In this document: positions 26,523-61,192 of the stretch, one piece after another
Layout: every line of letters begins with the position of its first letter
How positions within the stretch are numbered: position 1 is the first letter of the stretch
NCBI RefSeq assembly: GCF_000382285.1
Contig: NZ_KB907933.1
Location: forward strand, 1-64,000
Reading direction: 5' to 3'
Origin: Solimonas variicoloris DSM 15731
GTDB taxonomy: Bacteria > Pseudomonadota > Gammaproteobacteria > Nevskiales > Nevskiaceae
DNA length: 64,000 nt
Made by a program: the position numbers and the translations under genes
The notes under the pieces: generated by a model
The model's database searches: none
The model's input: the letters and a program-made list of their open reading frames with translations, nothing else
Told to the model about the DNA's origin: nothing

Positions 26523-28025
26523 TCAGGCCGGCACCGCCACGGTCTTGATCTGCAGGTATTCCTCGAAGCCCTGCACGCCCATCTCGCGGCCGATGCCGCT
26601 CTGCTTGTAGCCGCCGAACGGCGCGTCGGGCGCGAAGAAGTTCGCGCCGTTGACGTTCAGCGTGCCGGTGCGGATGCGCCGCGCCAGCCGCAGCGCGCGC
26701 CCGGCATCGGCGGAGACGATCGCGCCCGACAGGCCGTAGATCGAGTCGTTGGCGATGCGCACCGCGTCGTCGTCGTCGTCATAGGGGATCGCCACCAGCA
26801 CCGGGCCGAAGATTTCCTCCTGCGCGATGCGCATGTCGTTGCGCACGTCGGCGAACAGCGTCGGCTCGACCCAGTAGCCGCGCGTCAGGCCGGCCGGCAC
26901 GCCGCCGCCGCAGACCAGGCGCGCGCCCTCGCGCCGGCCGGTCTCGATGTAGTCGAGCACGCGGCGCCGCTGCCGCTCGCTGACCAGCGGCCCCATGATC
27001 TGCTGCGGCGCGTACTGGTCGCCCGGCCGCACGTACGCGAACATCGCCTTGAGCGTTTCGATGCCTTCTTCGTAGCGCGACTTCGGCAGCAGAATGCGCG
27101 TCGGCAGCGCGCAACCCTGGCCAGCGTGGTAGCAGACGCCGAGCCCGGACAGCAGCGCCGTCGAAAAATCGGCGTCGTCGAGAATGATGTTCGCCGACTT
27201 GCCGCCGAGTTCGAGGAAGACTTTCTTCACGGTTTCGGCGGCGGCGGCCATGATGCGGCGGCCGGTCGGCGTCGAGCCGGTGAACGAGATCATGTCGATG
27301 CGCGGATCGCGGCACAGCTTCTCGCCGATCGCGGCCGGATCGGACGAGGTCAGCACGTTGAACACGCCGGCCGGGATGTCGGTCTGCTCGGCGACGAGCT
27401 TGCCGAGCAGCGTCGCCGTCCACGGCGTCTCGGGCGCCGACTTGAGCACCACCGTGCAGCCGGCGGCCAGCGCCGGCACGACCTTCGCCATGTTGATCTG
27501 GAACGGGAAGTTCCACGGCGAGATCGCGGCGACCACGCCGGCCGGCTCGCGCCAGACGAGGCGCCGGCTCGGCACGCCCATGTTGGCGGTGACCGGCAGC
27601 TCGCTGTCCCAGGCGTAGCGCGCCATCAGCTCGATCACGTAATCGAGGATGCCGATCGGGCCGTCGCCCTGCGGGCCGTTCTCGGTGATCGCCATCGGCG
27701 CGCCGGTTTCGGCGACGACCTGCGCGCGCAGCGCGGGCGCGCTGGCGCGCAGCGCGTCGCGCAGCTGCATCAGACAGCGCCGGCGCAGCGCGCGGTCGGC
27801 GGCCCAGACGCCGGCGTCGAAGGCGCGGCGCGCGGCGGCGATCGCCAGCTCGGCATCGTCGAGCCCGGCGTCGGCGACCTCGCCGATCACGGCCTCGGTG
27901 GCCGGATCGACGTTGGCGTAACGCCTGCCGGAGCGCGCCGCGACGAGGCGGCCGTCGATCAGCAGGCGCGCTTCGCCGGCGGTGGCGGACGCCGCGGCCG
28001 GCGCGGCGGTGGGGTCCAGGTTCAT
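26523..28025 (-). CDS. Aldehyde dehydrogenase (NAD(P)-dependent)
   Basis: 500 residues, normal length. PWNFP near residue 170, cofactor-site SFTGSTPTGRRI near 247, general base Glu272 in LELGGKS, nucleophile Cys305 in AGQGCALPTR, and EEIFGPV near the C-terminus. Oxidises an aldehyde to the acid; with P450s in the cluster, a steroid side-chain C26/C27 aldehyde is a natural candidate. GGAG upstream of ATG 28025. The EXPERA-like gene lies 28 bases upstream. Confidence 0.94.
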   Translation of the reverse strand: MNLDPTAAPAAASATAGEARLLIDGRLVAARSGRRYANVDPATEAVIGEVADAGLDDAELAIAAARRAFDAGVWAADRALRRRCLMQLRDALRASAPALRAQVVAETGAPMAITENGPQGDGPIGILDYVIELMARYAWDSELPVTANMGVPSRRLVWREPAGVVAAISPWNFPFQINMAKVVPALAAGCTVVLKSAPETPWTATLLGKLVAEQTDIPAGVFNVLTSSDPAAIGEKLCRDPRIDMISFTGSTPTGRRIMAAAAETVKKVFLELGGKSANIILDDADFSTALLSGLGVCYHAGQGCALPTRILLPKSRYEEGIETLKAMFAYVRPGDQYAPQQIMGPLVSERQRRRVLDYIETGRREGARLVCGGGVPAGLTRGYWVEPTLFADVRNDMRIAQEEIFGPVLVAIPYDDDDDAVRIANDSIYGLSGAIVSADAGRALRLARRIRTGTLNVNGANFFAPDAPFGGYKQSGIGREMGVQGFEEYLQIKTVAVPA

Positions 28026-28053: not shown

Positions 28054-28548
28054 TCAGGCGGCGCGCGGCCGCAGCAGGTGCAGGCGCAGCATCAGCAGGC
28101 CGAAGATGACCAGCCACAGGCCGTTGAAGATCACCACCGGCACGATCTGCGCGCCGGTCTGGCGATACGTCAGCAGCTCCCAGATCAGATAGAAGCCGAT
28201 CGCGTACGTCATCATCCCGGCCATGAAGGTCGCGAGGCCGCGATACCAGCGGCGATCCTGACGTCCGGCGGCGAAGACGATCAGCGACAGCACGTAGAAC
28301 CACGAGAAGAAGAACATGTCGAGCTCGTTGACGAGGCGCAGCCACAGCGGCGCGTCGACGTAGATCGGCTCGACCTGCACGTAGCCGAGCCAGGCGCGGC
28401 CGATCCAGCTCGCGCCGCAAGGCCCATCGATGCCGAGCTTCAGGCCGTCCCAGCCGCAGCCGAACACGAACAGCGGCGCGTAGACCAGCGACATGAAGCT
28501 GGTGAACAGGAACAGCATGATCAGCAGTCGGTCCAGCCAGCGTGACAT
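28054..28548 (-). CDS. EXPERA-domain-like four-helix membrane protein (emopamil-binding-protein type)
   Basis: 164 residues with four predicted membrane helices. The arrangement resembles the EXPERA family: acidic residues in helix 2 (LVNELDMFFF), an aromatic/acid helix 3 (AIGFYLIWELLTY) and a final helix with IFNGLWLVIFGLL, comparable with the NALWLV helix of human EBP, the delta-8 to delta-7 sterol isomerase. First gene of the nine-gene minus-strand steroid operon; GGGAGAA precedes the ATG. A sterol double-bond isomerase or a sterol-binding membrane protein is plausible. The family call rests on pattern, not on a search. Confidence 0.6.
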   Translation of the reverse strand: MSRWLDRLLIMLFLFTSFMSLVYAPLFVFGCGWDGLKLGIDGPCGASWIGRAWLGYVQVEPIYVDAPLWLRLVNELDMFFFSWFYVLSLIVFAAGRQDRRWYRGLATFMAGMMTYAIGFYLIWELLTYRQTGAQIVPVVIFNGLWLVIFGLLMLRLHLLRPRAA

Positions 28549-28588
28549 GCGGCGCTTCTCCCTGTTCCTGTAAACCCCAATGAAGGCC

Positions 28589-28664
28589 CGTCATTGCGAG
28601 CGCAGCGAAGCCATCCAGTCCGCAGCCAGATCCGGCACGTCGCCTGCGGCGCCTCGCGATGACG
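28589..28664. repeat. Dispersed palindromic repeat, copy A (short)
   Basis: Bounded by CGTCATTGCGAG and CTCGCGATGACG, which are near-perfect inverted ends. Internal sequence is shared with the copies at 30182, 30326 and 32553 (CGTCGCCTGCGGCGCCTCGC). Lies between the divergent EXPERA-like and Rieske genes. Confidence 0.75.
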
Positions 28665-28721
28665 TCGGCCGAAGATTCACGCCGACGCCGATACGCATTC
28701 ATCCCCCGTTTGGAGGACGAG

Positions 28722-28742
28722 TTGCAAACCATGCGCTTGCAA
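28722..28742 (+). promoter_or_regulatory. Candidate operator upstream of the Rieske oxygenase gene
   Basis: Two TTGCAA hexamers (28722-28727 and 28737-28742) nine bases apart. The right part, ATGCGCTTGCAA, is identical to 12 bases upstream of the second P450 gene in the same orientation relative to the gene. It lies about 54 bases before the Rieske start codon and between divergent operons, so it could control both. Confidence 0.5.
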
Positions 28743-28795
28743 TGTTTTGTGCGACATCCGGCGGCCACGCGGCCACCGTGCAGACGGAGACGAAG

Positions 28796-29980
28796 ATGGA
28801 AGGCAATCGGCATGGCGGCGATCTGAACTACGCCGCGGATACCCTGAAGCAGTCGTCGGCCTCGACCGTGCAGCGCAACCTGCAGACCATCCCGCGCCTC
28901 GCCGACGGCGCGCCGCGCTATGCGCGCGGCTGGCACATGGTCGGCTGGAGCGACGAGTTCCCGCAGGGCCAGGTGGTGCCGCGCGACTACTTCGGCATGC
29001 GCCTGGCGTTCTATCGCGGCGACGACGGCCGGGTTCGCTGCCTCGATGCGTTCTGTCCGCATCTCGGCGCCGATCTGTCGGCCGGCAAGGTCATCGGCAA
29101 CGCGCTGCAGTGCCCGTTCCACAACTGGCAGTACGACGGCGGCGGCCAGTGCGTGAAGATTCCGTACTGCGACAAGATCCCGGGCCGGGCGAAGACGCGC
29201 GCGTTCGAAACGCGCGAGATGAACGACACGGTGCTGATCTGGTTCGATCCCGAACTCGGCCCGCCGGACTACGAGATCCCGCCGCTCGCCGATTACTCGC
29301 CGGCCGATGCAGTCGATTCGAAAGGCTGGACGCGCGGCTGGCGGCGCTTCCGCATCACCATCAAGACGCATCCGCGCGAGGTGATCGAGAACACCGTCGA
29401 CAAAGGCCATCTGCTGCCGATCCACGGCTACGATGTCGACCGCTGGCTGCCGATCTGGAACGGCCACATGACCGGCGAGCTGATGTGGGGCACGCACACG
29501 CGTCTGGCCGCCGACGTCCGGGACGACAAGCTCTACGTGCGCTCTGTGACCTACGGCCCCGCGTACCAGTACACCTGGCAGACGCAGGACTCGCGGCTGT
29601 TCGACTCGGCGATCCTCACCGCCTGGTGCCCGGTCGACGAGAACACGCTGGAATACTGGTTCGGCGTCATCGTCAAAGCCAACGCCGCCGAGTTTCCGCC
29701 GGAAGCGCTCGAAACCGCGGCGCAGGGCTACTGCGAGGCCTCGTACGACGCCTTCATGGAAGACGTCTACATCTGGGAGCGCAAGCTCTACCGTCCGGAG
29801 CCGACGCTGTGCGCGAACGACGGGCCGATCGCCAAGCTGCGGCGCTGGTACGCGCAGTTCTACACCGACCGCAAGGATCTGCCGGCACCGTTTCGCAACA
29901 ACAACCACCACTGGACCGTGCACGACCTGCGCGACCGCCGCGCCGAGGTCGTCGCCGCCCAGGACGAGGCGCTGGCCTGA
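28796..29980 (+). CDS. Rieske non-heme iron oxygenase, KshA/SdmA-like
   Basis: 394 residues. Rieske 2Fe-2S ligands C87-x-H89 and C106-x2-H109 (FCPHLGAD and LQCPFHNW); mononuclear iron ligands D202-x2-H205-x4-H210 (VDKGHLLPIH), the spacing of 3-ketosteroid 9-alpha-hydroxylase KshA and related steroid oxygenases. KshA with KstD opens ring B; the sterol C-4 demethylase SdmA belongs to the same broad group and is a real alternative given the sterol-isomerase-like neighbours. The ATG at 28796 has GGAG six bases upstream. A rubredoxin follows by 21 bases; no KshB-type reductase is in the window. Confidence 0.85.
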   Translation: MEGNRHGGDLNYAADTLKQSSASTVQRNLQTIPRLADGAPRYARGWHMVGWSDEFPQGQVVPRDYFGMRLAFYRGDDGRVRCLDAFCPHLGADLSAGKVIGNALQCPFHNWQYDGGGQCVKIPYCDKIPGRAKTRAFETREMNDTVLIWFDPELGPPDYEIPPLADYSPADAVDSKGWTRGWRRFRITIKTHPREVIENTVDKGHLLPIHGYDVDRWLPIWNGHMTGELMWGTHTRLAADVRDDKLYVRSVTYGPAYQYTWQTQDSRLFDSAILTAWCPVDENTLEYWFGVIVKANAAEFPPEALETAAQGYCEASYDAFMEDVYIWERKLYRPEPTLCANDGPIAKLRRWYAQFYTDRKDLPAPFRNNNHHWTVHDLRDRRAEVVAAQDEALA

Positions 29981-30001
29981 CCCTGCGAAAGGACGAAGCC
30001 G

Positions 30002-30163
30002 ATGGCGAAGTGGGAGTGCACGATCTGCGGCGATGTCTACGACGAAGCCGCAGGAGACCCGGAGCGCGGGATCGCGCCCGGCACGCGCTGGGAAGACGTG
30101 CCGGAGGACTGGGTCTGCCCGGATTGCGGCGCGGCCAAGGACAGCTTCGAACGGATCGCCTAG
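30002..30163 (+). CDS. Rubredoxin
   Basis: 53 residues starting [20 protein letters not shown]. Two iron-binding CxxCG loops, CTICG and CPDCG, with the family [15 protein letters not shown] block. Soluble one-electron carrier; here directly after the Rieske oxygenase, so it may replace or supplement its reductase chain. Its TAG stop codon is followed immediately by GGAAGGTCTG, the end of a MITE-like repeat, so insertion of the repeat may have supplied or kept the stop. Confidence 0.95.
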
Positions 30164-30305
30164 GGAAGGTCTGCAGAACGCCGTCATCGCGAGGCTGCGC
30201 CGGCCGCGGCGATCCAGACGCATCGCTTGCGCAGGGCATTGCTGGATGGCTTCGTCGCCTGCGGCGCCTCGCCAAGACGGAGCAGGGCTTATTCAGACCT
30301 TCCCC
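30161..30305 (+). mobile_element. MITE-like repeat, copy B
   Basis: About 145 bp. Outer ends GGGAAGGTCTG and CAGACCTTCCC are inverted repeats; inside lie CGTCATCGCGAGG and GCGCCTCGCCAAGACG (30182-30279). No coding capacity. The left edge abuts the rubredoxin stop codon. The internal sequence TGGATGGCTTCGTCGCCTGC is shared with copies C and D. Confidence 0.8.
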
Positions 30306-30317
30306 GGGGAAGGTCTG
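30294..30317. repeat. 24-bp perfect palindrome at the junction of two MITE-like copies
   Basis: CAGACCTTCCCC followed by its exact complement. It is formed by the right end of copy B meeting the left end of copy C head to tail, and would make a very stable cruciform or RNA hairpin. Confidence 0.85.
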
Positions 30318-30430
30318 CAGAACGCCGTCATCGCGAGGCCGCGCAGCGGCCGTGGCGATCCAGGGACGCCACCGGCGTCGTGCGCGGCTGGATGGCTTCG
30401 TCGCCTGCGGCGCCTCGCCATGACGATGGA
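30306..30430 (+). mobile_element. MITE-like repeat, copy C
   Basis: Starts GGGGAAGGTCTG and carries the internal inverted repeat from CGTCATCGCGAGG to GCCATGACG (30326-30425). Same internal sequence as copy B, with a different central spacer. The right outer end is degraded compared with copy B. Confidence 0.75.
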
Positions 30431-30549
30431 TCTTTTCAGTGCTTCCCGAGTGCCGTGCGCGCAGTGGCGCGCCTGCGCCGATCCCGTGGTACGCGGCCGC
30501 GCCGGCAGGCCCGAGCCGATCCTTCAGAACCCTCATCGCCGGAGCGCGC

Positions 30550-32115
30550 ATGAACGACCCCTCCCCTGCCCCTGACGCGCCGCGCCGTGCCTTCCTGCGC
30601 CGCCTGGCGCTGGCTTCGGCCGGCGCGGCGGCCGGCGCCGCGAGCTTCGATCTCGCCGCCGCCGCGCCGGTGCCGCGCCGCGAAACGCGGCACTGGGACG
30701 CGAGCACCGACGTGCTCGTGGTCGGCTCCGGCGCCGGCGGCATCGCCGCGGCGATCGACGCGCGCCGCGCCGGCGCCGAGGTGCTGGTGCTCGAAAAGTT
30801 CCAGGTACCCGGCGGCTCGTCGAGCATTTCCGGCGGCGTCTGTTACCTCGGCGGCGGCACCGCGCTGCAGAAGGCGCTCGGCTTCGAGGACAGCGTCGAG
30901 GCGATGCACGACTACATCATCGCCGCCAGCGGCCTGCACGCCTCGCCGGAAAAAGTGCAGCGCTACTGCGAGGGCAGCGTCGAGCATTTCGACTGGCTGG
31001 TCGGCAACGGCGTGGTCTACGCGCAGAAGTTCTCCGACGAAAAGGAGATCTCGATTCCGGACGGCTCGCTGTACTACTCGGGCAGCGAGCGCGTCTGGCC
31101 GTTCCGCGAGCGCATCCGCCCGGCGCCGCGCGGCCACGTGCCGCCGTCGCCGCACCTGATCGGCGGCCGCGATCTGATGCACGCGCTGCTCGACGCCGCG
31201 CAGCGCGCCGGCGCGCAGCTGCGCACGCGCCATTCTGCCGAGCGCCTGATCGTCGAAGCCGACGGCAGCATCGCCGGCGCGATGGTCGTCGACGAGCGCG
31301 TGCCGGGCAGCCCGAAGACGCTGGCGATCCGCGCGCGCCGCGGCGTGGTGCTCGCCGCCGGCGGCTTCATCCACAACCGCGAGATGGTGCAGCGCTTCGC
31401 GCCCGAGCTGTACGCGTGTTCCGCGCCGTGGGGGCGCGGCGGCGACCTCGGCATCGGCATCCTGATGGGCATGGCGGTCGGCGGCGCCGTACAGCGCATG
31501 CATCACGGCTTCGTCGTCATTCCGATCTACCCGCCCGAGGACATCGTCAAGGGCATCATCGTCAACGCGCGCGGCCAGCGCTTCGTGCCGGAGGACGGCT
31601 ACTACGGCCTGCTCGGCCACGAGATCGCCTTCCACCAGGACGGCCGCGCCTGGCTGATCGCCGACGATGCGATCGCCTACAAGTGGGACGACTTCCGCCT
31701 GCCGGTCGCGGCCACCGCGCCGAGCATCGCCGAGCTCGAAACGCGCCTCGACATGCCTCCGGGCGCGCTGGTGCAGAGCGTCGACTACTACAACGCACAC
31801 GCGCGCGACGGCGCGGACCCGCTGCTGCACAAGGCGGCGAAGTTCGTCGCGCCGCTGGGCCGCGCGCCGTACACCGCCTACGACCTCTCGGTGCAGAACG
31901 TGTTCGCGCCGGTGCATACCTTCGGCGGCCTGCAGACCGACGTCGACGCGCGCGTCATCGGCGCCTTCGGCGATCCGATTCCCGGCCTCTACGCCGCCGG
32001 CCGCACGGCGGCGAGCATCCCGGTCGCCCCGTACATCGGCAGCGGCATCTCGGTCGGCGACGCCAGCTTCTTCGGCCGCCGCGCCGGCCGCCACGCCGCA
32101 CAGCGCAAGGCCTGA
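30550..32115 (+). CDS. Tat-exported FAD flavoprotein (periplasmic KstD/fumarate-reductase-like)
   Basis: 521 residues. A twin-arginine signal (PRRAFLRRLALASAGAAAGA, from residue 11) implies export of a folded flavoprotein. FAD motif VLVVGSGAGGIAAAIDARRA, then PGGSSSISGGVCYLGGG. The C-terminal APYIGSGISVGDASFFGRRA keeps the Tyr (495) and Gly (499) spacing of the KstD active site but replaces the YPG motif with YIG. GGAG five bases before ATG 30550. A class I cytochrome c gene starts five bases after the stop, so the two likely form a periplasmic steroid dehydrogenase with its electron acceptor. Other candidates are a fumarate-reductase-like or flavocytochrome-c-like enzyme. Confidence 0.85.
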   Translation: MNDPSPAPDAPRRAFLRRLALASAGAAAGAASFDLAAAAPVPRRETRHWDASTDVLVVGSGAGGIAAAIDARRAGAEVLVLEKFQVPGGSSSISGGVCYLGGGTALQKALGFEDSVEAMHDYIIAASGLHASPEKVQRYCEGSVEHFDWLVGNGVVYAQKFSDEKEISIPDGSLYYSGSERVWPFRERIRPAPRGHVPPSPHLIGGRDLMHALLDAAQRAGAQLRTRHSAERLIVEADGSIAGAMVVDERVPGSPKTLAIRARRGVVLAAGGFIHNREMVQRFAPELYACSAPWGRGGDLGIGILMGMAVGGAVQRMHHGFVVIPIYPPEDIVKGIIVNARGQRFVPEDGYYGLLGHEIAFHQDGRAWLIADDAIAYKWDDFRLPVAATAPSIAELETRLDMPPGALVQSVDYYNAHARDGADPLLHKAAKFVAPLGRAPYTAYDLSVQNVFAPVHTFGGLQTDVDARVIGAFGDPIPGLYAAGRTAASIPVAPYIGSGISVGDASFFGRRAGRHAAQRKA

Positions 32116-32120
32116 AGCCC

Positions 32121-32534
32121 ATGAACCATCCGCTCGTGAAAACGCTCCTGCTCGCCGCCACGCTCGGCGCCGCGCTGCCGGCCACGGCCGCCTCCGCCGG
32201 CGCGCCGGATGACGGCGCCGTCGCCGGCGACGCGGCGCGCGGCCGCAAGGTCTTCTTCCAGTGCCGCACCTGCCACTATCCGGAGAAGGCCTACGGCAAC
32301 CACAACGGCCCGAACCTCTACGCCATCTTCGGCCGCAAAGCCGGCACGCGCGAAGGCTATGCGTACTACTCGGAGACGATGAAGAACGCCGGCTTCGTGT
32401 GGACGCCGCAGCTGCTCGACTTCTGGCTCGCCAACCCGAAGACCTTCCTGCCCGACAGCACGATGGTCGTCTTCGCGACCACGCCGCAGGAGCGCGCCGA
32501 CCTCATCGCCTATCTGCAGCAGTTCCACGATTAA
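32121..32534 (+). CDS. Class I cytochrome c (periplasmic)
   Basis: 137 residues: signal peptide (LLLAATLGAALPATAASA), heme site C48RTCH52, NGPNLYAIFGRKAGT as in mitochondrial-type cytochromes c, and axial Met115 in DSTMVV. Five bases after the Tat flavoprotein, so a two-gene electron-transfer module is likely. Its TAA stop is followed at once by GGAAGCTCTG, the end of MITE-like copy D, repeating the pattern seen at the rubredoxin stop. Confidence 0.94.
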   Translation: MNHPLVKTLLLAATLGAALPATAASAGAPDDGAVAGDAARGRKVFFQCRTCHYPEKAYGNHNGPNLYAIFGRKAGTREGYAYYSETMKNAGFVWTPQLLDFWLANPKTFLPDSTMVVFATTPQERADLIAYLQQFHD

Positions 32535-32674
32535 GGAAGCTCTGAATCCATCCGTCATCGCGAGGTAGCGCAGGCCGCGGCGATCCGGATACTGCGCCGG
32601 CGCAGGGCGCTGCTGGATGGCTTCGTCGCCCGCGGCGCCTCGCGATGACGGCATAGGGACTTGCTCAGACCTGC
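32535..32674 (+). mobile_element. MITE-like repeat, copy D
   Basis: About 140 bp. Outer ends GGAAGCTCTGA and TCAGACCTGCC are imperfect inverted repeats; the inner inverted repeat runs from CGTCATCGCGAGG to CCTCGCGATGACG (32553-32648). Directly adjoins the cytochrome c stop codon. It lies in the short space between the convergent cytochrome c and membrane-protein genes and may act as their shared terminator. Confidence 0.78.
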
Positions 32675-32688
32675 CCTGGCCGCCGCGC

Positions 32689-33330
32689 TCACGGCAGCGC
32701 GTAGAAGTGCCGCAGCAGCAGATGCGCCGGCAGGTACAGCAGCAGCGGAAAGCCGATGAGCGCGATCAGCAGCCAGGCCCAGGCCGGCATCCAGCGCTGC
32801 GGCGCGTCGTCGGAAAGGCCGTAGACGTAGTTGATGTTGATCGGCGCCAGGCCGCGCCGCGTCGACGGTGGCGACGGCGTTGGCATGAAGAAATAGCAGA
32901 CCAGCACCAGCACGGTGGCGATCGCGGTCCAGACCGGCAGCGCGCGCGGATCGTAGCCGGTGCGCGTCAGCAGCCACAGCAGCAGCAGCGGCAGCCAGCC
33001 GTGGAACAGCGACAGGCCACGCAGGAAACGCGAGCGCTGGCGGTCGAACATGTAGTCGGTCATCCCGCTCAGGCGTCCGCCGGCCAGGCGCACCGCGAAA
33101 TCGAGCAGCCAGAACATCTGCGGCAGCAGGATGCCGACCGTCGGGATCGACAGCAGCAGCGCGTTCTCCGTCCACACGCCGGCCAGCGTGAACAGCAGCG
33201 CGACGTCGCAGAAATAGAGGAAGTTGGTCGGCCCGTAGCGGCGCAGGTAGACCGGCAGCAGCACCGCCATGAAGGCGGTGTAGCCGAGCTTGAGCAGCAA
33301 CGGGATCGGCGCGTGCGCGGCGAGGTCCAT
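32689..33330 (-). CDS. Polytopic membrane protein of unknown function
   Basis: 213 residues, five to six predicted membrane helices with conserved-looking polar points (NFLYFCDVALLF, PQMFWLLDFAVR, GMTDYMFD, LFHGWLPLLLLWLL, NINYVYGL). I do not recognise the family with certainty. The start at 33330 (MDLAAHAPIPLL) is a choice; a longer form from 33363 is possible, and neither has a strong ribosome-binding site. It sits in the steroid region next to the cytochrome c and could be an enzyme of lipid metabolism or a sensor; nothing in the sequence decides. Confidence 0.7.
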   Translation of the reverse strand: MDLAAHAPIPLLLKLGYTAFMAVLLPVYLRRYGPTNFLYFCDVALLFTLAGVWTENALLLSIPTVGILLPQMFWLLDFAVRLAGGRLSGMTDYMFDRQRSRFLRGLSLFHGWLPLLLLWLLTRTGYDPRALPVWTAIATVLVLVCYFFMPTPSPPSTRRGLAPININYVYGLSDDAPQRWMPAWAWLLIALIGFPLLLYLPAHLLLRHFYALP

Positions 33331-33446
33331 GGGCGTTCGAAAGGAGCGAGGCCGGCCGACCATAGCAAGCCGCGCCGGCGCGCGGCCACCGGACGGGCGC
33401 CGGGCAGCGGCCGCGCGGGCAACGCGGCGCAACGCGCCGACCTGTC

Positions 33447-34100
33447 TCAGTCGCGGTCCGGCGCGCCGAGCGGAAAGTACGAGCGGTAAGGCCGCGCCTC
33501 ATCGACGCAGCGCGCGAACGACGGCCGTGCCAGCAGGCGCCGGCGATAGGCGATCACGTTGGCGAACTTCGAATCGATCGCGTGCGTCCAGTCGGCGTAA
33601 AACAGCGACGGCGCCGCCGCGCAGTCGGCGAGGCTGAAGGTCTCGCCCGCCGCCCAGGTGCGCTTCGCCATCACGCCGTCGAGCCAGGCGTACGAGGTTT
33701 CGAGCATCCGCCGCGCCTCGTCGACGCCGTACGGATCGCGATGGGCCTCGGGGCGCAGCGCGTTGTAGACGACGCGCCCCTGCGGCGTCATGACGTAGTT
33801 GTCGAAGAAGCGATCCATCATCCGCACGTCGAGCGCCGCCTGCGGGTCGTCCGGGATCAGCGGCACCGGTCCCGGATGAAAGCGCTGCAGGTGCTCGATG
33901 ATGATCGTCGATTCGAGCACCGCCCGGCCGTCGTCGACCAGCAGCGGAAAGCGCTTGATCGGCCACAGCGCCGCCAGTTCGGCGTCGATGGCCGGCGTGC
34001 CGACCTGGCGGTATTCGAACGGCGTGCCGTTCTCGTAAAGGGCGATCAGCGCCTTGTGGCAGTACGACGAGAACGGGTGTGCGTAAAGTTGGAGGGACAT
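33447..34100 (-). CDS. Glutathione S-transferase family protein
   Basis: 217 residues. N-terminal thioredoxin-like domain (LYAHPFSSYCHKALIALYE; the SSYC segment is where the catalytic Ser/Cys lies), cis-Pro and glutathione-binding KRFPLLVDDGRAVLESTII, and an all-helical C-terminal domain (FSLADCAAAPSLFYADW). Likely a glutathione-dependent detoxification or isomerisation enzyme. ATG 34100 fits an AAGGA site seven bases upstream. A VOC-family gene lies 14 bases upstream on the same strand, so co-expression is likely. Confidence 0.9.
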   Translation of the reverse strand: MSLQLYAHPFSSYCHKALIALYENGTPFEYRQVGTPAIDAELAALWPIKRFPLLVDDGRAVLESTIIIEHLQRFHPGPVPLIPDDPQAALDVRMMDRFFDNYVMTPQGRVVYNALRPEAHRDPYGVDEARRMLETSYAWLDGVMAKRTWAAGETFSLADCAAAPSLFYADWTHAIDSKFANVIAYRRRLLARPSFARCVDEARPYRSYFPLGAPDRD

Positions 34101-34114
34101 CGGCATTCCTTTCC

Positions 34115-34606
34115 TCAGCCAGCGTAGGCGCGGCGCAGCGCCGCGAGATCGAGCTTCTGCATCGGCATCAGCGCCGCCATCACGCGCTCGGCCGCGGCCG
34201 GCGTGCCGGTAATCCATTTCAGCAACTCGGCCGGCACCACCTGCCAGGACACGCCGTAGCGATCCTTCAGCCAGCCGCACTGCCCCGCGCTGCCGCCATG
34301 CGCCGCCAGCGCCTGCCAATAGCGGTCGATCTCGTCCTGCGAGACACATTCGATCTGGAACGAGATCGCTTCATTGAAATGGAACTGCGGGCCGCCGTCG
34401 AGCGCGGTGAAATGCTGGCCGTCGAGTTCGAATTCGACCGTCAGCACCGAGCCGGGCGCGTGGCCGTGAATCTCGCGGCCGGCCTCGGTGTAATACGACG
34501 TCGCAGTAACACGCGAGTTCGGGAAGATGCCGGTATAGAAGCTCGCGGCAGCCTCGGCCTGCCCGTCGAACCACAGGCAAGGGGCAATGCGGCATTTCAC
34601 GCTCAT
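34115..34606 (-). CDS. VOC-family protein (PhnB/3-demethylubiquinone-like)
   Basis: 163 residues from MSVKCRIAPCLWFDGQAEAA; AGGAG precedes this ATG by eight bases. Typical features: PNSRVT, GSVLTVEFELDGQHFTALDG, CGWLKDRYGVSWQVVP and the PMQKLDLAAL end. The family adopts a paired beta-alpha-beta fold; many members have no known reaction and the UbiG-related name is historical. Probably in a two-gene unit with the GST. Ordinary metabolic accessory gene. Confidence 0.9.
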   Translation of the reverse strand: MSVKCRIAPCLWFDGQAEAAASFYTGIFPNSRVTATSYYTEAGREIHGHAPGSVLTVEFELDGQHFTALDGGPQFHFNEAISFQIECVSQDEIDRYWQALAAHGGSAGQCGWLKDRYGVSWQVVPAELLKWITGTPAAAERVMAALMPMQKLDLAALRRAYAG

Positions 34607-35152
34607 CCTGGTCTCTCCTGACCCCGGCTGACCGGCCGGTACGGGCATGACCATGCGCCACGCCCTGATACGTCGAACGAGCCGGGCCGAAATCGACATC
34701 AGGGCTGCGGCATGGGCGTCGATCAGGTCAAAGGCAGCGTCGGCAATGAAAAGTGCGGCCTGGGCAAAGTGCCCGTCGGGCCGTTGGCTCAAGGGCTGCT
34801 CGGCGCCAGAATCGGCCGGCAGCGTTTCGGCAGCTAACGGCTGCAGCCGCACCAAAGTAGTCTTCGGAGGATTACGAAAGGTTGGCAGACTCAGTGCTCA
34901 CAAATCCGTGTAGCCCACGTCACCGGAGGTCTCGATAGCAGAGATTCTCGTACGGCACATTGAGAAGTAGGGCGTGAATGGGCTTGTGCTTGGAGCCTGC
35001 ACGCCATCACACCATGTCATGGATCGAAAAGGTCCACGTCTGGGTTGCTGGCCTGTCGACATTAATACGGAATGTGTGGCGTGTTGTCTTAAACAGATCG
35101 GGAGCAGGCTCTCAGCAGTTTGAATGCCAAACGCACTTAACTGGATCTGAGG
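34607..35152. other. Gene-free stretch at the edge of the low-GC island
   Basis: 546 bases with no ORF I can support. GC content drops from about 34860 onward, toward the large ATPase gene. Short open frames here lack ribosome-binding sites and family resemblance. The stretch probably holds the promoter of the VOC/GST pair and the left boundary of acquired DNA. Confidence 0.5.
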
Positions 35153-37813
35153 TTACGACTTTCGGATTTTGTTTCGAAGATCGATCATGAACTGCCTTTC
35201 CTTTTTGTTGAAGGCGTTGCGCCTAACCTCACACCCCTTCATGACCGTCTCAAGTTCATTGAGATCATTCTCGAAGTGTAGGGGGCTAGGCATTTCATAC
35301 TGTCCGGCGATCGGGCTGTCATGGCCCGCGATTACCTCGCTGGCCTTGCCGTAGACCGACACGATTTTGCGCCACTCGTCGATTTCAAAGCCAGCAATGG
35401 CGCCAACCTGGATGACCCGAACCTCGTCACTGAATGGATGAACGGTGTCGTTCAATACGACTTCACGAATGGCCCGCTCGATCATGCCGCGCATGTGCGC
35501 GTAAGCATCGCGCATAGCCTTCTTGTCATCATTGTTGGGATAGGGATTTTGGGTCGCCTTCATGAGCGCAGAGGTGGCCTTCAACTCCCTCATCTGATCG
35601 CCGTATGGCTTGCTCTCCCAAGCCAGTCCATCGAGGAGAGCGCCCGGGCTTCCCCCTTGCCATTCCACTGTCTGGATCTTTGCTGCGGCCTGCTGCTCGG
35701 CGATTTCTCCCAAGAGGGTAGTCAGGAAGACGGCGTCGTGCGTGAAGATCACCACAGGGCGCGTACTGGACAGATGGACCAGATGCTGGGCCATTTTTCG
35801 TCGGTGTAAGTGATCCAGTGAGGTGGACGGATCATCGAAAACAATGGTGGATTTATCCCCACGAAGCTTGGCTTCTGCCAGGAAGAAGGCGAGGGCGACG
35901 GCCCGCTGCTCACCTTCCGAGAGCACTTCATGTGTGCCGCGACCACAGCCCTCCAAGGCTAGGCCATACACATTCCGACCACCCTTGGTCTGGCTAGTGA
36001 GCACGGGCTTCACCCGGTGGCGGTAGCCCAAGGCTTCTAGCTCATCATTGAATGCCTTCGCCAGCGCGTCCGTGGCGTGAATTCTCGACAGGTTCGTTAT
36101 TTTTGTGGAGATGGACCTAGTGTTTAGTGCGTCGCGTGCTGCTTCCAGTGCGCTTCGGCGTTTGGCCGCGCTGATGTAGGTCCGCAGAGCTGGCAAATGC
36201 GCGCTTAGGTCGCGTCGCGATGTGAGCTCGGCCAGCTGGCTCGCGAGATTGTCGTGCTCCTTTTGATCTTTGGCCTTGCGGAGCTGGTCCGCGCGTTGGC
36301 GGAGGGATGCGGCCTTCGCAGAGAACCGCACTGACAACGAGTCGCCGTCGGGTAAGGGCGGGCGCGGATCGGTCCAGTGGGACAGCATGTAAGATTGGGC
36401 CATCCATTCACGGCGTGCCACCCACGCCGCTTGATGAGCACTGACTGCTTCAGCGAGGCCTTCGTCACTTTGCTTGATTTCAGCCAAAGTGGGCGCGTCT
36501 ACTGGGGCAAGGTTGGCGTCGTCGATCTTTTTGCGCGCCTCTGTGACAGCCCTACGGGCGCTCTCCAAGTTCTGTGCGGCATCGGCAGCCACGAACTTTC
36601 TAAAGCGGATCATGCGCGCTTGTGCGTCCTCTCCAAGAGATTGCTGGCAAAGGACGCACTGATCATTCGGGCCGCTGGCCGGGTGGTCCTCATGCTCGGA
36701 GTAGGCTTTGAGCGAAAATGCTTGGGCGGCCTTGAACAAGGCCTTCCATTCTTCTCCGCCGGTTTCAGGGAGCAGACCACCCGCGTGACCGTCGAGGGCG
36801 CCATCACCACGAAGAAGGCCTTGGGCGAGACGATCGGCGTCGATGGCAGCGTCTTCGGCAAGGGCGAAGCCGGCGAACTTGTCCATGGCGGCGTCGGAGA
36901 CGAAACGCTCGGCAATGGTTGCAAAGTTCTTAAGGAGGTCAATCCGTCGGGCTAGAAGCTCGTGCTTGATCGCTTCAGGTTCGACGTCCAAGCCCTTAAT
37001 GGCCGCCGACAGTTCCTTGATCTCCTCGGTTTCTTGCGGGGTTAGCTTCGCCAAAGCTTCGAAGGCCGCAATGTCGGTATTCGGGCCCAGTTTGGCCATG
37101 ATTTTTCCGACAGAGTGGGCGCCTTGCAGAGCGGCGAATTGGTCGCTTCGGAGATGGATAGCGCCGATCTCGCGATTGAGCTGCTCCTGGATCACTTGCT
37201 GGGCAGTTGCCAGCGCAGACAAGGCATGGAGTCCGTATGGAACAAAAATCGACGGGCCGTCTTTGCTGATGTAGTCCTGAGCGCAGTGGCTGTCATAAAC
37301 CGACACCATGGCCAAGTCAGCGTTGCTGGCGTTACCTTCGACCCAGATTGTCTTGTGGTTCTTGCCTCCGGATGCGTAGGCGAAAGTCGCTTCGGGCTGG
37401 GCGGGCATCCCCTTGGTAAAGGCATTTGCCAGAACCGGGGTTGAGTGCCGGGCCCGGCAGGCCCGCTTCATTACCCGGGCGTAGCCGGACTTGCCTGCGC
37501 CGTTCTCGCCAAAGATCACGGTGATCCCATTATCGGCTATATCAAGCCGGCGGCCGTTAGGGAAGCCGTTCACGTTGTTTAGGCCCGAGAGGCCCTGAAG
37601 AATCGTGGACGTGCCTGATCCCATCGTGGGGATATGGGCCTTGGTCAGCAGCTCCGGCTTGAGGGCGTCAGCAACCCCTGCGACCATGGCCCTGATCTCG
37701 ACCAGGTCCTCTTCGGTGAGCTGGCCATTGGCCGCAAAGATGCGCCGAAGGGCGTCGCGCTGCCAGTCAGGAAGGTCATTCGACCAAGCAAGGATGTCGT
37801 CTAGAAGGGCCAT
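35153..37813 (-). CDS. Large AAA/SMC-like ATPase with a zinc-hook CxxC (RloC/PrrC-like, probable defence protein)
   Basis: 886 residues, ABC-ATPase/Rad50-like. Walker A GENGAGKSG (102-110); a mid-protein helical region with a CVLC zinc-hook motif (Cys386, Cys389); ABC signature LSEGEQRAVA (631-640); Walker B TIVFDDPSTSLD with Asp660/Asp661 and D-loop; His-switch FTHD (His692). The roughly 180 C-terminal residues after the ATPase head (after about 710) are an extra domain, mostly helical (DAYAHMRGMIERAIREVV). This layout matches RloC, a phage-induced anticodon nuclease, and other AAA_13-type guard ATPases. The anticodon-nuclease Arg-Glu-His set cannot be assigned with confidence. The gene stands alone in lower-GC DNA with different codon use, suggesting horizontal transfer. 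Confidence 0.82.
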   Translation of the reverse strand: MALLDDILAWSNDLPDWQRDALRRIFAANGQLTEEDLVEIRAMVAGVADALKPELLTKAHIPTMGSGTSTILQGLSGLNNVNGFPNGRRLDIADNGITVIFGENGAGKSGYARVMKRACRARHSTPVLANAFTKGMPAQPEATFAYASGGKNHKTIWVEGNASNADLAMVSVYDSHCAQDYISKDGPSIFVPYGLHALSALATAQQVIQEQLNREIGAIHLRSDQFAALQGAHSVGKIMAKLGPNTDIAAFEALAKLTPQETEEIKELSAAIKGLDVEPEAIKHELLARRIDLLKNFATIAERFVSDAAMDKFAGFALAEDAAIDADRLAQGLLRGDGALDGHAGGLLPETGGEEWKALFKAAQAFSLKAYSEHEDHPASGPNDQCVLCQQSLGEDAQARMIRFRKFVAADAAQNLESARRAVTEARKKIDDANLAPVDAPTLAEIKQSDEGLAEAVSAHQAAWVARREWMAQSYMLSHWTDPRPPLPDGDSLSVRFSAKAASLRQRADQLRKAKDQKEHDNLASQLAELTSRRDLSAHLPALRTYISAAKRRSALEAARDALNTRSISTKITNLSRIHATDALAKAFNDELEALGYRHRVKPVLTSQTKGGRNVYGLALEGCGRGTHEVLSEGEQRAVALAFFLAEAKLRGDKSTIVFDDPSTSLDHLHRRKMAQHLVHLSSTRPVVIFTHDAVFLTTLLGEIAEQQAAAKIQTVEWQGGSPGALLDGLAWESKPYGDQMRELKATSALMKATQNPYPNNDDKKAMRDAYAHMRGMIERAIREVVLNDTVHPFSDEVRVIQVGAIAGFEIDEWRKIVSVYGKASEVIAGHDSPIAGQYEMPSPLHFENDLNELETVMKGCEVRRNAFNKKERQFMIDLRNKIRKS

Positions 37814-38109
37814 GGCGTTGAACGTGAAGGCGAGTTTTTTCAGTAGTGCTGTTCATCGGCTCTCCGGCGCATGATTGAGACTTTTACCCTCGTCCCCGGC
37901 TACGGGAGGGCTATGGCTGCCGGCCGGCGTCCCCTGATTCTGACTAGCACGACCGCTTAGCGTCCAATCGTCGCACCCCCGACATTAGTGATCGTCCGCT
38001 TCTGGTCTATCTACGCAGTTCGCCCCCAAATCCCGAAGGACCGCTTCGGGCTGAGAGCTGTCGATGGGCAGCGTCTCACCAACGCGTCCCGCCGAGCTTC
38101 CTCCCATCC

Positions 38110-38949
38110 TCAGGCAATCGGCCCGACGACCCAGGTAAACAGATCGAGCAGCAGCAGCACGATCATGCTGACCGCCGAGGCCTCGATCACCGTGCGGCCG
38201 ATCGTCCATGGCTGGGCGGCGTCCTCGTCTAGGCGGTAGACGTTGGGGAAGCTGACGATGAAGTACAGCGCGTAGCAGACGGAGCCGAGCGAGAGCATGC
38301 GCGGGATGTCGACGTACCAGACGTTGGCGCGTGAGAGGTCCGAGACGCCGACGTAGAAATACGTCTCCGCCCAGGCGAAGAAGTACGCGGCCACCGCGAC
38401 CGTCAGCGCCCACAGCAGCGCGCGCAGCCAGGCCGAGGCGGCGAGCGTCATCGTGCGCACGCGGCGCATCAGCACGACGGCGATGCTGTGGTAGACGATG
38501 AAGAACGCGATGGCGTTGAAGTACATGCCGACCGGCACCTTGCGGTAGCTCGCCAGCGCGGTCGCCTCGTCCGGGCCGAGCAGCGCCGAATCGAAGTACC
38601 AGCTCACCTTCGGGAATTGGTAGCGGATGCCGAGCACGTCGAAGAAATACTCGGTATGGAAGTACGTCGCGAAGAAGACGTACACGAACATGTAGACGTT
38701 GTACTTGAACCAGTAACTGCGCTGCCACGGTACGCCGCTGTGGCGGCGCAGCCAGGCCGGCAGCAGCACGCAGAACGGCAGCCACATCGCCAGGTTCTGC
38801 ATCAGGTGCCAGAAGTTGCCGACGTCGAGCAGGCCGGAGGCGAGGATCGCGTAGTTGTAGACGCAGAACACCGGCACGAAGGCGAGAAAGAACTTCTCGC
38901 CCCAGGCCTTGTCCGGATTCTTCGAGAACCAGTAGCCCGCCAACGCCAT
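38110..38949 (-). CDS. Cycloeucalenol-cycloisomerase-like (CPI1-like) membrane protein
   Basis: 279 residues, about six to seven membrane helices, nearly the length of plant CPI1. Blocks that recall Arabidopsis CPI1: NPDKAWGEKFFLAFVPVF near the N-terminus, YWFKYNVYMFVYVFFATYFHTEYFF followed by VLGIRYQFP, an AWAETYFY helix, CYALYFIVSFPNVYRLDED, and LLLLDLFTWVVGPIA at the end. CPI1 opens the 9-beta,19-cyclopropane ring of cyclosterols to give delta-8 sterols. GGGAGG lies seven bases before ATG 38949. A CMD-family gene lies 106 bases upstream on the same strand. The comparison is from memory, but the blocks occur in the same order along the whole protein. Confidence 0.75.
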   Translation of the reverse strand: MALAGYWFSKNPDKAWGEKFFLAFVPVFCVYNYAILASGLLDVGNFWHLMQNLAMWLPFCVLLPAWLRRHSGVPWQRSYWFKYNVYMFVYVFFATYFHTEYFFDVLGIRYQFPKVSWYFDSALLGPDEATALASYRKVPVGMYFNAIAFFIVYHSIAVVLMRRVRTMTLAASAWLRALLWALTVAVAAYFFAWAETYFYVGVSDLSRANVWYVDIPRMLSLGSVCYALYFIVSFPNVYRLDEDAAQPWTIGRTVIEASAVSMIVLLLLDLFTWVVGPIA

Positions 38950-39583: not shown

Positions 39584-41488
39584 ATGGGAACTCGCGACGG
39601 GCATCGCTGCGGCCGCGGCCGCATGGCGATCGCGGCGGCTTTGCTGGCCGCCGGCGCACCGGCGGCGCATGCGGATTCGTACGAGGCGTACGGCGTCGAG
39701 ATCGAAACCCAGCTCTCCGCCACCTACTCGGCGGCATGGCGCCTGCACGATCCGGACCGCCGGCTCATCGACGCGCCCGGCGCGGCGACGATCCCGGTGC
39801 CGGACTACTTCAAGGTGCCGGAATCGGCGAACTACGACGACGGCAATCGCAACTTCGCCAAGGGCGCGACGATCAACAACCGTCTGACGCTGCTCGGCGA
39901 GCTGATGCTGCGCAAGGACGATTACGGCTTCCAGCTGCGCGGCGATGCGTTCTATGACGACGTCTACCGCCGCCGCAACGACAACGATTCGCCGGAGACG
40001 ATCAGCAAGACCGACGGCGCCTACAACGAGTTCAGCCGCGACGCGCGCTACTACGACGGCGCCCGCGCGCGCCTGCTCGACGCCTACGCCTTCGGCTCCT
40101 GGTATCTGAGCGACACCACGGTGCTCAATCTGCGCGTCGGCCAGCACGTCGCCGCCTGGGGCGAGAGCCTGTTCTTCGACGGCATCGCCCTCTCGCAGGG
40201 GCCGGCCGACGCCACCAAGGCCAACCTGCCCGGTGTCGACGTCAAGAGCCTGCTGCTGCCGGTCAACCAGGTCTCGATGCAGCTCGCGCTCAACGAGGAC
40301 TGGACCGTGCTCGGCCAGTACAAGCTGGACTTCAAGCCGACCGAGCTCAACCCGGTCGGCGAGTATTTTTCGGTGACGGATGTGGTCGGCCCCGGCGCGG
40401 CATTCATCTACGGGCTGGAGAATCCGCTGTACCTGCCGAACTATTCCGACTTCAACCTGCTCTCCGACGACGCCGTCGAACTCGTCAATCTCGCGCTGTC
40501 CGCGCTGGCGCCGAACGCGCCGACCGGCACCGTCACGCAGGCGCTCGGCCGCATCCTCAACGCGCTCGATCCGATCCTCCCCGACGTGCCGCTGCCGGTC
40601 GGCCAGATCAGCCAGCCGGGCACGCCGCGCTACATCAACGTGCAGCGCCTCAAGGACACGCGGCCGAGCTGGGGCGGCCAGTACGGCATCGGCCTCAAGT
40701 ACCAGCTCACGCCGGTCACCAACATCGGCCTGTACTGGCTGCGCTACCACAGCACCACGCCGGCGCCGGTGCAGAACTACGGCTATGCGCCGCTGATCGG
40801 CGGCGTCGGCAGCGTGCCGCCGGTGCTGACCACGCAGATCCTCAACCTCGAGGTGCCGGTCACCTACAGCGTTCACTACTTCGACGGCATCCATCTCGCC
40901 GGCCTCAGCTTCTCGACCACGCTCGGCGGCGTCAACGTCGCCGGCGAAGCGCTCTATCGCGACGGCGCCGACGTGCTCGTCGATGTCGACGGCGGCCTGC
41001 TCGGCCCGGTGCCGACGCCGGTGCGCTCGAAGATCTGGCAGGGCCTGCTGTCCGGCCTGTACTCGTTCGGTCCCGGTCTGTTCTGGGATTCGCTGTCGCT
41101 GGTCGGCGAGACCGGCTTCATTCACGTCGCCGACAACGATGCGGGTTGCGGGCCGACCAGCTGCACCAGGGATCTCACCTACTCGCGCGACGCCGCGGGC
41201 CTGTCGACGCTGGCGATCATCGACCGCAAGAACGTCATCTCCGGCTGGGATCTCTCGGTGCCGGTCAGCTACGCGATGATGATCGCCGGCCAGAGCTCGC
41301 TGCTGTCCGGCTTCGGCGCGCTGATGGGGCCGCACGACAAGCGCTTCGGTATCGGCGCCTACATGACCTATCTGCAGCAGTTCACCGTCGGCGTGCAGTA
41401 CAGCGGCTTCTTCGGCAAGCCCGACCTGCGCGCCAACCCGTACGCGGATCGCGACAACATCGGCATCACGCTGAAGTACAACTTCTGA
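39584..41488 (+). CDS. DUF1302 outer-membrane beta-barrel protein (second copy)
   Basis: 634 residues; signal peptide ending AHA near residue 30. Same family landmarks as the copy at 16411-18057: AKGATINNRLTLLGELMLR, YGFQLRGDAFYDDVYRRRND, LNLRVGQHVAAWGESLFFDG and a terminal Phe after LKYN. About 90 residues longer than the first copy, mostly in a loop around PNYSDFNLLSDDAVELVN. Preceded by GGGGGAGAG. Divergent from the CMD/CPI1-like pair, so a shared regulatory region is likely; its DUF1329 partner may be the gene at 44718. Confidence 0.93.
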   Translation: MGTRDGHRCGRGRMAIAAALLAAGAPAAHADSYEAYGVEIETQLSATYSAAWRLHDPDRRLIDAPGAATIPVPDYFKVPESANYDDGNRNFAKGATINNRLTLLGELMLRKDDYGFQLRGDAFYDDVYRRRNDNDSPETISKTDGAYNEFSRDARYYDGARARLLDAYAFGSWYLSDTTVLNLRVGQHVAAWGESLFFDGIALSQGPADATKANLPGVDVKSLLLPVNQVSMQLALNEDWTVLGQYKLDFKPTELNPVGEYFSVTDVVGPGAAFIYGLENPLYLPNYSDFNLLSDDAVELVNLALSALAPNAPTGTVTQALGRILNALDPILPDVPLPVGQISQPGTPRYINVQRLKDTRPSWGGQYGIGLKYQLTPVTNIGLYWLRYHSTTPAPVQNYGYAPLIGGVGSVPPVLTTQILNLEVPVTYSVHYFDGIHLAGLSFSTTLGGVNVAGEALYRDGADVLVDVDGGLLGPVPTPVRSKIWQGLLSGLYSFGPGLFWDSLSLVGETGFIHVADNDAGCGPTSCTRDLTYSRDAAGLSTLAIIDRKNVISGWDLSVPVSYAMMIAGQSSLLSGFGALMGPHDKRFGIGAYMTYLQQFTVGVQYSGFFGKPDLRANPYADRDNIGITLKYNF

Positions 41489-44677: not shown

Positions 44678-44717
44678 GGTGCGGTTCCGGATCGTGTGGC
44701 GGTATGAATGAACGGAT

Positions 44718-46085: not shown

Positions 46086-46228
46086 CACGTCCTCCTCGCT
46101 GGATGGACGCACGCCGGCCTGACCGTCCGCCGGCACGCTGTCCAGGATTCTCTGACAAGGCGAAGCGTCAGACTCGCGCCGCTCGGCCGAGACTTGCGCT
46201 GTCGCCCCCGCCGGATGCAGATTACAAT

Positions 46229-46255
46229 GCGATCGCAATGTTTTTTTGCGATCGC
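46229..46255. promoter_or_regulatory. 27-bp perfect inverted repeat in the DUF1329/luxR divergent region
   Basis: GCGATCGCAA, a seven-base spacer TGTTTTT, then the exact complement. It lies 144 bases upstream of the DUF1329 start and 124 bases upstream of the LuxR start. Typical geometry for a dimeric regulator operator, most simply the LuxR-type protein encoded next to it; a regulator in the TetR class is an alternative. Confidence 0.6.
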
Positions 46256-46379
46256 CTGCTTCGGTCGGTGACCGATAGTCGGCAGTCAGCAGCGGCGGGC
46301 GCATCCTCCAAATCAGTGAGGTTTTGCGCGTGACCGCGGAGAGGCCGGTCCACGGCCCCGTTCGAGGAGGAGGAAAACG

Positions 46380-59986: not shown

Positions 59987-61192
<1,206 letters not shown>

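What the first reader, a model, noticed from the sequence alone, without database searches (positions are those of the whole stretch)
28054..38949. Two sterol-isomerase-like membrane proteins (CPI1-like and EXPERA-like) inside a steroid catabolic region
The protein at 38110-38949 shows, in order, the sequence blocks I associate with plant cycloeucalenol cycloisomerase (NPxKxWGExFF, YWxKxN, YFxTxYFFxVLGxxYxFP, an internal Glu helix, YAIYFIVSFP followed by DE, and a C-terminal LLDL..GPI). The protein at 28054-28548 has the four-helix EXPERA pattern of EBP-type delta-8 sterol isomerases. They sit among a Rieske oxygenase, KstD-like enzymes, SDRs and P450s. If both assignments hold, the organism may open the cyclopropane ring of cyclosterols and move the nuclear double bond before degradation, a pathway I do not know to be described in bacterial catabolism. 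A sterol-modifying or biosynthetic role is the alternative.
Basis: partly seen in the sequence, partly recalled or inferred. Interest (0 to 1): 0.78.

Follow-up and report, generated by a model that had tools for sequence, protein, structure and literature searches.

The report
Bacterial cyclosterol-opening enzyme, probably catabolic
A bacterium that seems unable to build sterols, but carries steroid-breakdown genes, has a relative of the plant enzyme that opens the three-membered ring of plant sterols, suggesting an undescribed bacterial route for eating these molecules.

Summary
Both proteins are real, on the minus strand. In 76 related loci, the sterol 14-demethylase CYP51 lies within 6 kb on the same strand in 35, and CYP51 or an 8,14-sterol-reductase (Bsr) homologue in 39. 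Most carriers look like degraders: KshA_C in 64 of 67 carriers tested; an oxidosqualene-cyclase motif in 5 of 67, all lanosterol-type by a recalled rule. The window's genome has KshA_C and no cyclase match. The 28054-28548 protein is EXPERA-like by weak profile and fold evidence, but EBP's essential His and Glu are absent; a delta-8 isomerase is not supported. Unlike many relatives, the window's genome has no CYP51 or strong Bsr match, so its substrate is open. The searches made found no bacterial CPI in print. Best reading: opening of imported 9,19-cyclosterols before ring degradation.

The parts
38110..38949 (-). CPI-type cyclopropylsterol isomerase homologue (open frame extends to 39024; start at 38949 favoured)
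28054..28548 (-). EXPERA-like membrane protein (P0002), four long helices in the model; EBP catalytic His/Glu absent
26523..28025 (-). aldehyde dehydrogenase, best NCBIfam model TIGR04284 (Rv0768; 680.6 bits, below its cut-off of 775), 28 bases from P0002
26153..26479 (-). 2Fe-2S ferredoxin
25349..26092 (-). SDR, PRK07774 type (over the NCBIfam cut-off)
24519..25325 (-). SDR
28797..29980 (+). KshA-type Rieske oxygenase, divergent from P0002 (open frame from 28580; its first part holds a repeat-like stretch, so a start near 28797 is my preference)
30439..32115 (+). FAD_binding_2 flavoprotein (PRK07121 family, over the NCBIfam cut-off)
19992..21713 (-). KstD-like flavoprotein (residues 329 onward of the open frame 19992-22697; best NCBIfam model is a 3-ketosteroid-delta-1-dehydrogenase, below its cut-off)
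21734..24106 (-). PQQ-dependent dehydrogenase
39584..41488 (+). DUF1302 protein, next to the CPI gene and divergent from it
43178..44875 (-). aldehyde dehydrogenase superfamily protein
44718..47663 (-). open frame whose C-terminal third is a DUF1329 domain
47684..49102 (-). P450 'a': nearest solved relatives are CYP51s but the CYP51 I-helix signature is absent; its 78% identical relative lies beside the CPI gene in Hydrocarboniphaga (G018)
49267..50631 (-). P450 'b': its 79-83% identical relatives lie near the CPI gene in Solimonas fluminis (G017) and three more genomes of that genus
56164..59628 (-). MMPL transporter
59987..63891 (-). thiolase, MaoC, SDR and acyl-CoA dehydrogenase genes (beta-oxidation type)

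Best explanation
The 38110-38949 protein is a bacterial member of the cyclopropylsterol (cycloeucalenol) isomerase family, used in catabolism. It would open the 9,19-cyclopropane ring of cyclosterols taken up from plants or algae by protonating C19 and removing the C8 hydrogen, giving a normal C10 methyl and a delta-8 bond. The 9,10-seco steroid pathway, which needs a free C9 position for KshA, could then go on. In about half of the related loci the gene lies with CYP51 (14-demethylation) or an 8,14-sterol reductase, often with SdmB-like 3beta-hydroxysteroid dehydrogenases, together a pre-treatment of 4,4,14-methylated cyclosterols. In the window's lineage no CYP51 or strong reductase homologue was found, and the gene co-occurs with a KshA-type Rieske protein and an EXPERA-like protein that may bind a sterol or move its nuclear double bond. 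Shown: homology, gene context, co-occurrence, no cyclase match. Inferred: substrate, order of steps, and function of the EXPERA-like protein.
For: Full-length homology to CPI1 (recalled sequence), E 1.8e-33, profile 179 bits versus 12.7 for the best of 200 shuffles; 26 of 32 invariant residues shared, among them E43, K107, H179, E220, D266, E267. 76 related loci: CYP51 within 6 kb on the same strand in 35, Bsr in 27, SdmB-like in 24, CYP51 or Bsr in 39, any of the three in 49. One CYP51-ferredoxin fusion of a relative matches M. capsulatus CYP51 at E 1.1e-184; it and five others inspected carry AGHHTS. The six pocket residues published for 8,14-Bsr occur at their exact spacing in 22 of 28 Bsr hits; among 2612 ORFs of 130-330 aa in the loci 20 match, the same number as the exact Bsr hits in that length range. 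KshA_C in 18 of 18 and 46 of 49 carriers; VSDCTAE cyclase motif in 5 of 67 carriers; no cyclase match in the window's genome. P0002 relatives occur in 12 of 12 related genomes with a clade-1 CPI and in 2 of the other 88. Counterparts of the window's SDR-Fdx-ALDH cassette stand in line with CYP51-SdmB-like-Bsr-CPI in Spongiibacter pelagi.
Against: No biochemical evidence. 0 of 11 clade-1 genomes of the window's family have a CYP51 at E <= 1e-60 or a strong Bsr match, although 17 of 21 other clade-1 genomes have a CYP51 match (16 at 40% identity or more). 27 of 76 loci have none of CYP51, Bsr or SdmB-like within 6 kb. The five carriers with the cyclase motif are lanosterol-type, so own-made cycloartenol does not explain the enzyme there. 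KshA counts have no control of non-carriers; the one non-carrier searched, G029, has KshA_C too. E125, invariant in bacteria, is His in the recalled plant sequence. In the window the CPI gene is 9.5 kb from the EXPERA/Rieske genes. The Spongiibacter locus has no EXPERA-like hit. No Pfam or NCBIfam model matched and no solved fold resembles the model.
Confidence: 0.62

Rival explanations
1. The bacterial family is a sterol nuclear double-bond isomerase (for example moving the delta-8 or delta-8(14) bond left by CYP51 and 8,14-Bsr) rather than a cyclopropane opener.
For: Bsr lies within 6 kb in 27 of 76 loci; carriers with an oxidosqualene-cyclase motif are lanosterol-type; degraders of 8(14)-sterols would need to shift that bond (inference).
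Against: The residues kept are largely those shared with plant CPI1 (26 of 32), whose known reaction is ring opening (established knowledge; need for CPI in plants: PMC8172173, passages). The window's lineage keeps the protein without a CYP51 or strong Bsr match.
Confidence: 0.2
2. A sterol-making or sterol-remodelling role: the organism makes its own sterols or refits imported ones for its membrane.
For: CYP51, 8,14-Bsr and SdmAB are biosynthetic in methanotrophs (PMC13277303, parts 1-2 of 7 and passages); 5 of 49 wider carriers, four of them titled Myxococcota groups and one 'uncultured bacterium', also have a cyclase with the DCTAE motif.
Against: No cyclase match in the window's genome; the 3 of 19 related genomes with one have DLDDTA, the hopene type. 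The window's genome and 46 of 49 wider carriers hold KshA_C-type oxygenases.
Confidence: 0.1
3. In the window's lineage the gene has been re-used: after loss of CYP51 the protein acts on another cyclopropane- or delta-8-containing steroid, one without the 14-methyl group, or on a C19 intermediate.
For: CYP51 found in 0 of 11 clade-1 genomes of the window's family against 17 of 21 other clade-1 genomes; other partners, a KshA-type Rieske gene and P450 'b', near the gene in several relatives.
Against: The family's invariant residues are kept in the window's protein; an unrecognised 14-demethylase (for instance P450 'a') is possible.
Confidence: 0.3
4. The EXPERA-like protein is a non-catalytic sterol-binding or scaffold protein of the TMEM97/sigma-2 kind and not an isomerase.
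Against: Best profile hit and best Foldseek hit are EBP; Asn193 and Trp196 equivalents are kept; model confidence is modest (pLDDT 72.8 on 4 sequences).
Confidence: 0.5

Closest known systems
Plant cyclopropylsterol isomerase CPI1 (cycloeucalenol cycloisomerase)
   Same: Order of sequence blocks, 26 of 32 invariant residues, polytopic membrane protein; plant sequence recalled
   Different: Bacterial; mostly in genomes with KshA_C and without an oxidosqualene-cyclase match; linked to CYP51/Bsr or near a KshA-type Rieske gene; E125 in place of His
Methanotroph sterol set: CYP51-ferredoxin, 8,14-Bsr, SdmAB (Lee, Giner, Welander 2026, PMC13277303)
   Same: Relatives' loci hold CYP51-ferredoxin fusions, Bsr homologues with the same pocket residues, and SdmB-like dehydrogenases
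   Different: CPI added; most carriers have no oxidosqualene-cyclase match; 'cycloartenol' occurs in that paper once, in the reference list, and no CPI is named in the parts and passages I saw
Mycobacterial cyp51 neighbourhood (Rv0763c-Rv0769; gene names and order recalled)
   Same: Ferredoxin, Rv0768-like aldehyde dehydrogenase and PRK07774-type SDR also form the window's cassette
   Different: No actinobacterium is named in the titles of the 76 CPI loci; no CYP51 match in the window's genome
Human EBP and TMEM97 (EXPERA proteins)
   Same: Helix arrangement in the model, with short helices between the first and second long ones; Asn193/Trp196 equivalents
   Different: EBP His76 and Glu80 missing; no Pfam EBP match

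Membership tests
Cyclopropylsterol isomerase (CPI1) | Full-length sequence homology to plant CPI1 | tested here: met
   29% over 285 columns, E 1.8e-33; profile 179 bits.
Cyclopropylsterol isomerase (CPI1) | Conserved residues of the family | tested here: met
   26 of 32 bacterial invariants shared with the recalled plant sequence
Cyclopropylsterol isomerase (CPI1) | Polytopic membrane protein | tested here: met
   Hydropathy peaks; model pLDDT 89.3 with seven helices of 18 residues or more
Cyclopropylsterol isomerase (CPI1) | Match to a curated family model | tested here: inconclusive
   No match in Pfam or NCBIfam; I do not know of a CPI model in either
Cyclopropylsterol isomerase (CPI1) | Opens the 9,19-cyclopropane ring | not testable with these tools
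   needs expression and GC-MS
EXPERA superfamily | EXPERA fold | tested here: met
EBP delta-8 sterol isomerase | Pfam EBP (PF05241) above its cut-off | tested here: not met
   no match
EBP delta-8 sterol isomerase | His76 and Glu80, both essential (PMC6549186) | tested here: not met
   Ser20 and Ala24 in the window protein by the profile alignment
EBP delta-8 sterol isomerase | Asn193 and Trp196 | tested here: met
   N142 in 17 of 17, W145 in 16 of 17
CYP51 (for P450 'a') | I-helix signature GxHTS and CYP51-level similarity | tested here: not met
   GLDTV in its place; best CYP51 structure E 2.8e-39 against E 1.1e-184 for a relative's CYP51
8,14-sterol reductase (for relatives' NTF2-type protein) | Pocket residues Y37, Y43, Y78, Y80, D133, D136 at their spacing | tested here: met
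   22 of 28 hits; no match in the window's genome
Aerobic 9,10-seco steroid degrader | KshA and KstD present | tested here: met
   three KshA_C matches; KstD-like proteins, below NCBIfam cut-offs
Aerobic 9,10-seco steroid degrader | HsaC/TesB and later ring genes | not tested
   a CoA-transferase pair and an acyl-CoA-dehydrogenase-like gene were seen on the same contig
Sterol producer | Oxidosqualene cyclase | tested here: not met
   no PF13249 match in the window's genome, 99% complete

The most novel reading that the evidence does not exclude
Bacteria of several phyla hold an undescribed catabolic route for cycloartenol-type triterpenoid sterols: CPI-type ring opening, CYP51 and 8,14-Bsr 14-demethylation, and 4-demethylation by SdmB-like and fatty-acid-hydroxylase-type proteins, feeding KshA/KstD ring cleavage. 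The sterol 'biosynthesis' enzymes CYP51, Bsr and CPI would then serve mainly for breakdown in these bacteria, and plant-type CPI1 may have bacterial roots.
Probability: 0.5. Interest if true: 0.85.

Novelty: new variant of a known kind. Interest (0 to 1): 0.72.

Why it matters
Cyclosterols are the first sterols of plants and many algae, and how bacteria recycle them has, to my knowledge, no gene assigned. A family placing CPI beside CYP51 and 8,14-Bsr in genomes mostly without an oxidosqualene-cyclase match suggests that sterol-demethylating enzymes of bacteria, perhaps including the mycobacterial CYP51 neighbourhood, may serve breakdown of methylated sterols. It gives a testable gene set, bacterial CPI proteins for structure work (no solved fold resembles the model), and a caution for using CYP51 or CPI genes as signs of sterol synthesis.

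Tried and rejected

Literature: searches. No listing showed a bacterial CPI or genes for cyclosterol breakdown; the library lacks most subscription papers. Seen: PMC13277303 parts 1-2 of 7 plus passages; passages of PMC12004948, PMC8172173, PMC6549186, PMC10714780, PMC10202945; PMC4919349 a term search with no hits; all others only as listings. The Mycobacterium paper on cycloartenol (J Nat Prod 1991, 54:178) was seen only as a reference-list entry.

Full report
OBSERVATION. The two proteins are there, both on the minus strand: 38110-39024:- (304 aa, P0001) and 28054-28548:- (164 aa, P0002). Codon-position GC supports both as genes. The assembly is listed in the same genus as G007, whose 99% identical protein sits on a contig of the same length (115,416) as the Solimonas flava DSM 18980 contig; so the organism is probably a Solimonas. 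Gaps within the P0002 cassette are 23, 60, 43 and 28 bases.

THE CPI PROTEIN. Pfam and NCBIfam have no match. Of 32 residues invariant in 65 bacterial sequences (the window's included), 26 are the same in that plant sequence, among them E43, K107, H179, E220, D266 and E267; E125 is His in the plant. The AlphaFold2 model is confident (pLDDT 89.3, pTM 0.86, 65 sequences), and no solved structure resembles it.

DISTRIBUTION. 18 of 100 related genomes (the window's included) carry a match, one of them in fragments; an even sample of 369 genomes of the class gave only the window's own. A scan of one genome per species with the alignment gave 76 loci, in Nevskiaceae, Halieaceae, Spongiibacteraceae, Zavarzinia, sphingomonads, Ketobacter, Myxococcota and other deltaproteobacterial MAGs, two Chloroflexi MAGs and others. 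A tree of 69 of these loci, the window and the recalled plant sequence splits into clade 1 (33 loci and the window) and clade 2 (36 loci, with the plant sequence on a very long branch); it is rooted at the midpoint for drawing only.

GENE CONTEXT. In the 76 loci, CYP51 (phmmer E <= 1e-60) lies within 6 kb on the same strand in 35, Bsr in 27, an SdmB-like dehydrogenase in 24, CYP51 or Bsr in 39, any of the three in 49; 27 have none, some of them on short contigs. In the tree, a CYP51 is on the locus in 30 of 36 clade-2 loci and 6 of 33 clade-1 loci. No formal chance control was run for this closeness; genomes searched show one or two CYP51 matches each at this threshold, so closeness by chance should be rare. 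The CYP51 label is sound: one clade-2 fusion matches Methylococcus CYP51-ferredoxin at E 1.1e-184, with its ferredoxin part, and it and five others inspected all carry AGHHTS. The Bsr label rests on the published pocket residues of the methanotroph 8,14-sterol reductase: their exact spacing is found in 22 of 28 hits. Examples: L118, Bsr-CYP51-SdmB-like-CPI in a row; Stenotrophobium (L161), aldehyde-dehydrogenase-like, fatty-acid-hydroxylase type, 3beta-HSD type, CYP51, SdmB-like, Bsr, CPI on one strand; Spongiibacter pelagi (L138), counterparts of the window's ALDH, SDR, Fdx and SDR genes, then a CMD-type gene, then CYP51-SdmB-like-Bsr-CPI. The last example ties the P0002 cassette to the CPI set, though it has no EXPERA-like hit itself.

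MAKER OR EATER. PF13249 (squalene/oxidosqualene cyclase) matches 3 of the 19 related genomes given (18 CPI carriers and the non-carrier G029), none being the window's; all three have DLDDTA, the hopene type. In 49 further carriers it matches 13 at E <= 0.001 (11 over the cut-off): five with DxDD[TS]A, five with VSDCTAE, three with neither motif. V before SDCTA is, by a rule I recall, the lanosterol type. KshA_C is found in 19 of 19 and 46 of 49; non-carriers were not tested as a control, save G029, which has it. The window's contig also holds a second KshA gene, a KstD-like gene, an acyl-CoA-dehydrogenase-like gene and a CoA-transferase pair between 76 and 102 kb. So the window's organism looks like a steroid degrader without sterol synthesis.

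THE ODD POINT. The 11 clade-1 genomes of the window's family with an intact gene, the window's included, have no CYP51 at E <= 1e-60 (best match of the window's genome is P450 'a', 24%, E 8e-33) and no strong Bsr, though 17 of 21 other clade-1 genomes have a CYP51 match, 16 at 40% identity or more (two of these partial) and one at 31%. P450 'a' lacks the CYP51 signature. In this lineage the CPI gene lies close to a KshA-type Rieske gene in several genomes and next to P450 'a' in Hydrocarboniphaga. Either an unrecognised enzyme removes the 14-methyl group, or the substrate lacks it, or the methyl group is tolerated. This is the chief gap in the reading.

MECHANISM. CPI would protonate C19 of the cyclopropane and take the C8 hydrogen, giving a delta-8 sterol with a normal methyl at C10 (known plant chemistry, recalled; here inferred). 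The cyclopropane sits on C9, the carbon KshA hydroxylates, so opening it is a sensible first step of breakdown. A delta-8 bond would still block C9; a shift to delta-7 would free it. P0002 could do that, but its missing catalytic residues speak against a copy of EBP's chemistry.

VERDICT. I found no account of a bacterial CPI or of genes for cyclosterol breakdown in the searches, within an open-licence library. That microbes transform cycloartenol is known from a 1991 title (reference list).

Noticed in passing
window 28590-28616: A 27-base stretch GTCATTGCGAGCGCAGCGAAGCCATCC, which I recall as a dispersed bacterial repeat, lies inside the called N-terminus of the Rieske open frame; one copy in the window.
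   Followed up: partly
window 35153-37813: A large AAA_13/SMC-like ATPase gene with third-position GC 0.69, against 0.93 of the CPI gene, lies between the P0002 cassette and the CPI gene; it may be an insertion that parted them.
   Followed up: no
window 10673-12219: An IS200-type transposase-like and a Fic-type open frame with low third-position GC (0.76, 0.65) near the cluster.
   Followed up: no
L053:10806-11570: In G009, which has CPI and CYP51 but no Bsr match, the gene after CPI codes for a 254 aa membrane-like protein without an NCBIfam match; a candidate replacement of the 14-reductase.
   Followed up: no
L132, L139: Two Chloroflexi MAG contigs carry a CPI gene without CYP51, Bsr or SdmB-like hits; their genomes (G127, G133) have no KshA_C match.
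   Followed up: no
L105: A contig titled Klebsiella pneumoniae (MAG) carries a CPI whose protein is nearly identical to that of an uncultured gammaproteobacterium (L104); the title looks wrong.
   Followed up: no
L115, L116, L119, L120: A sphingomonad/Myxococcota sub-branch of clade 1 has CPI but no CYP51 match at E <= 1e-60 (its fifth member, L151, only a 31% match), a second apparent loss besides Nevskiaceae.
   Followed up: partly
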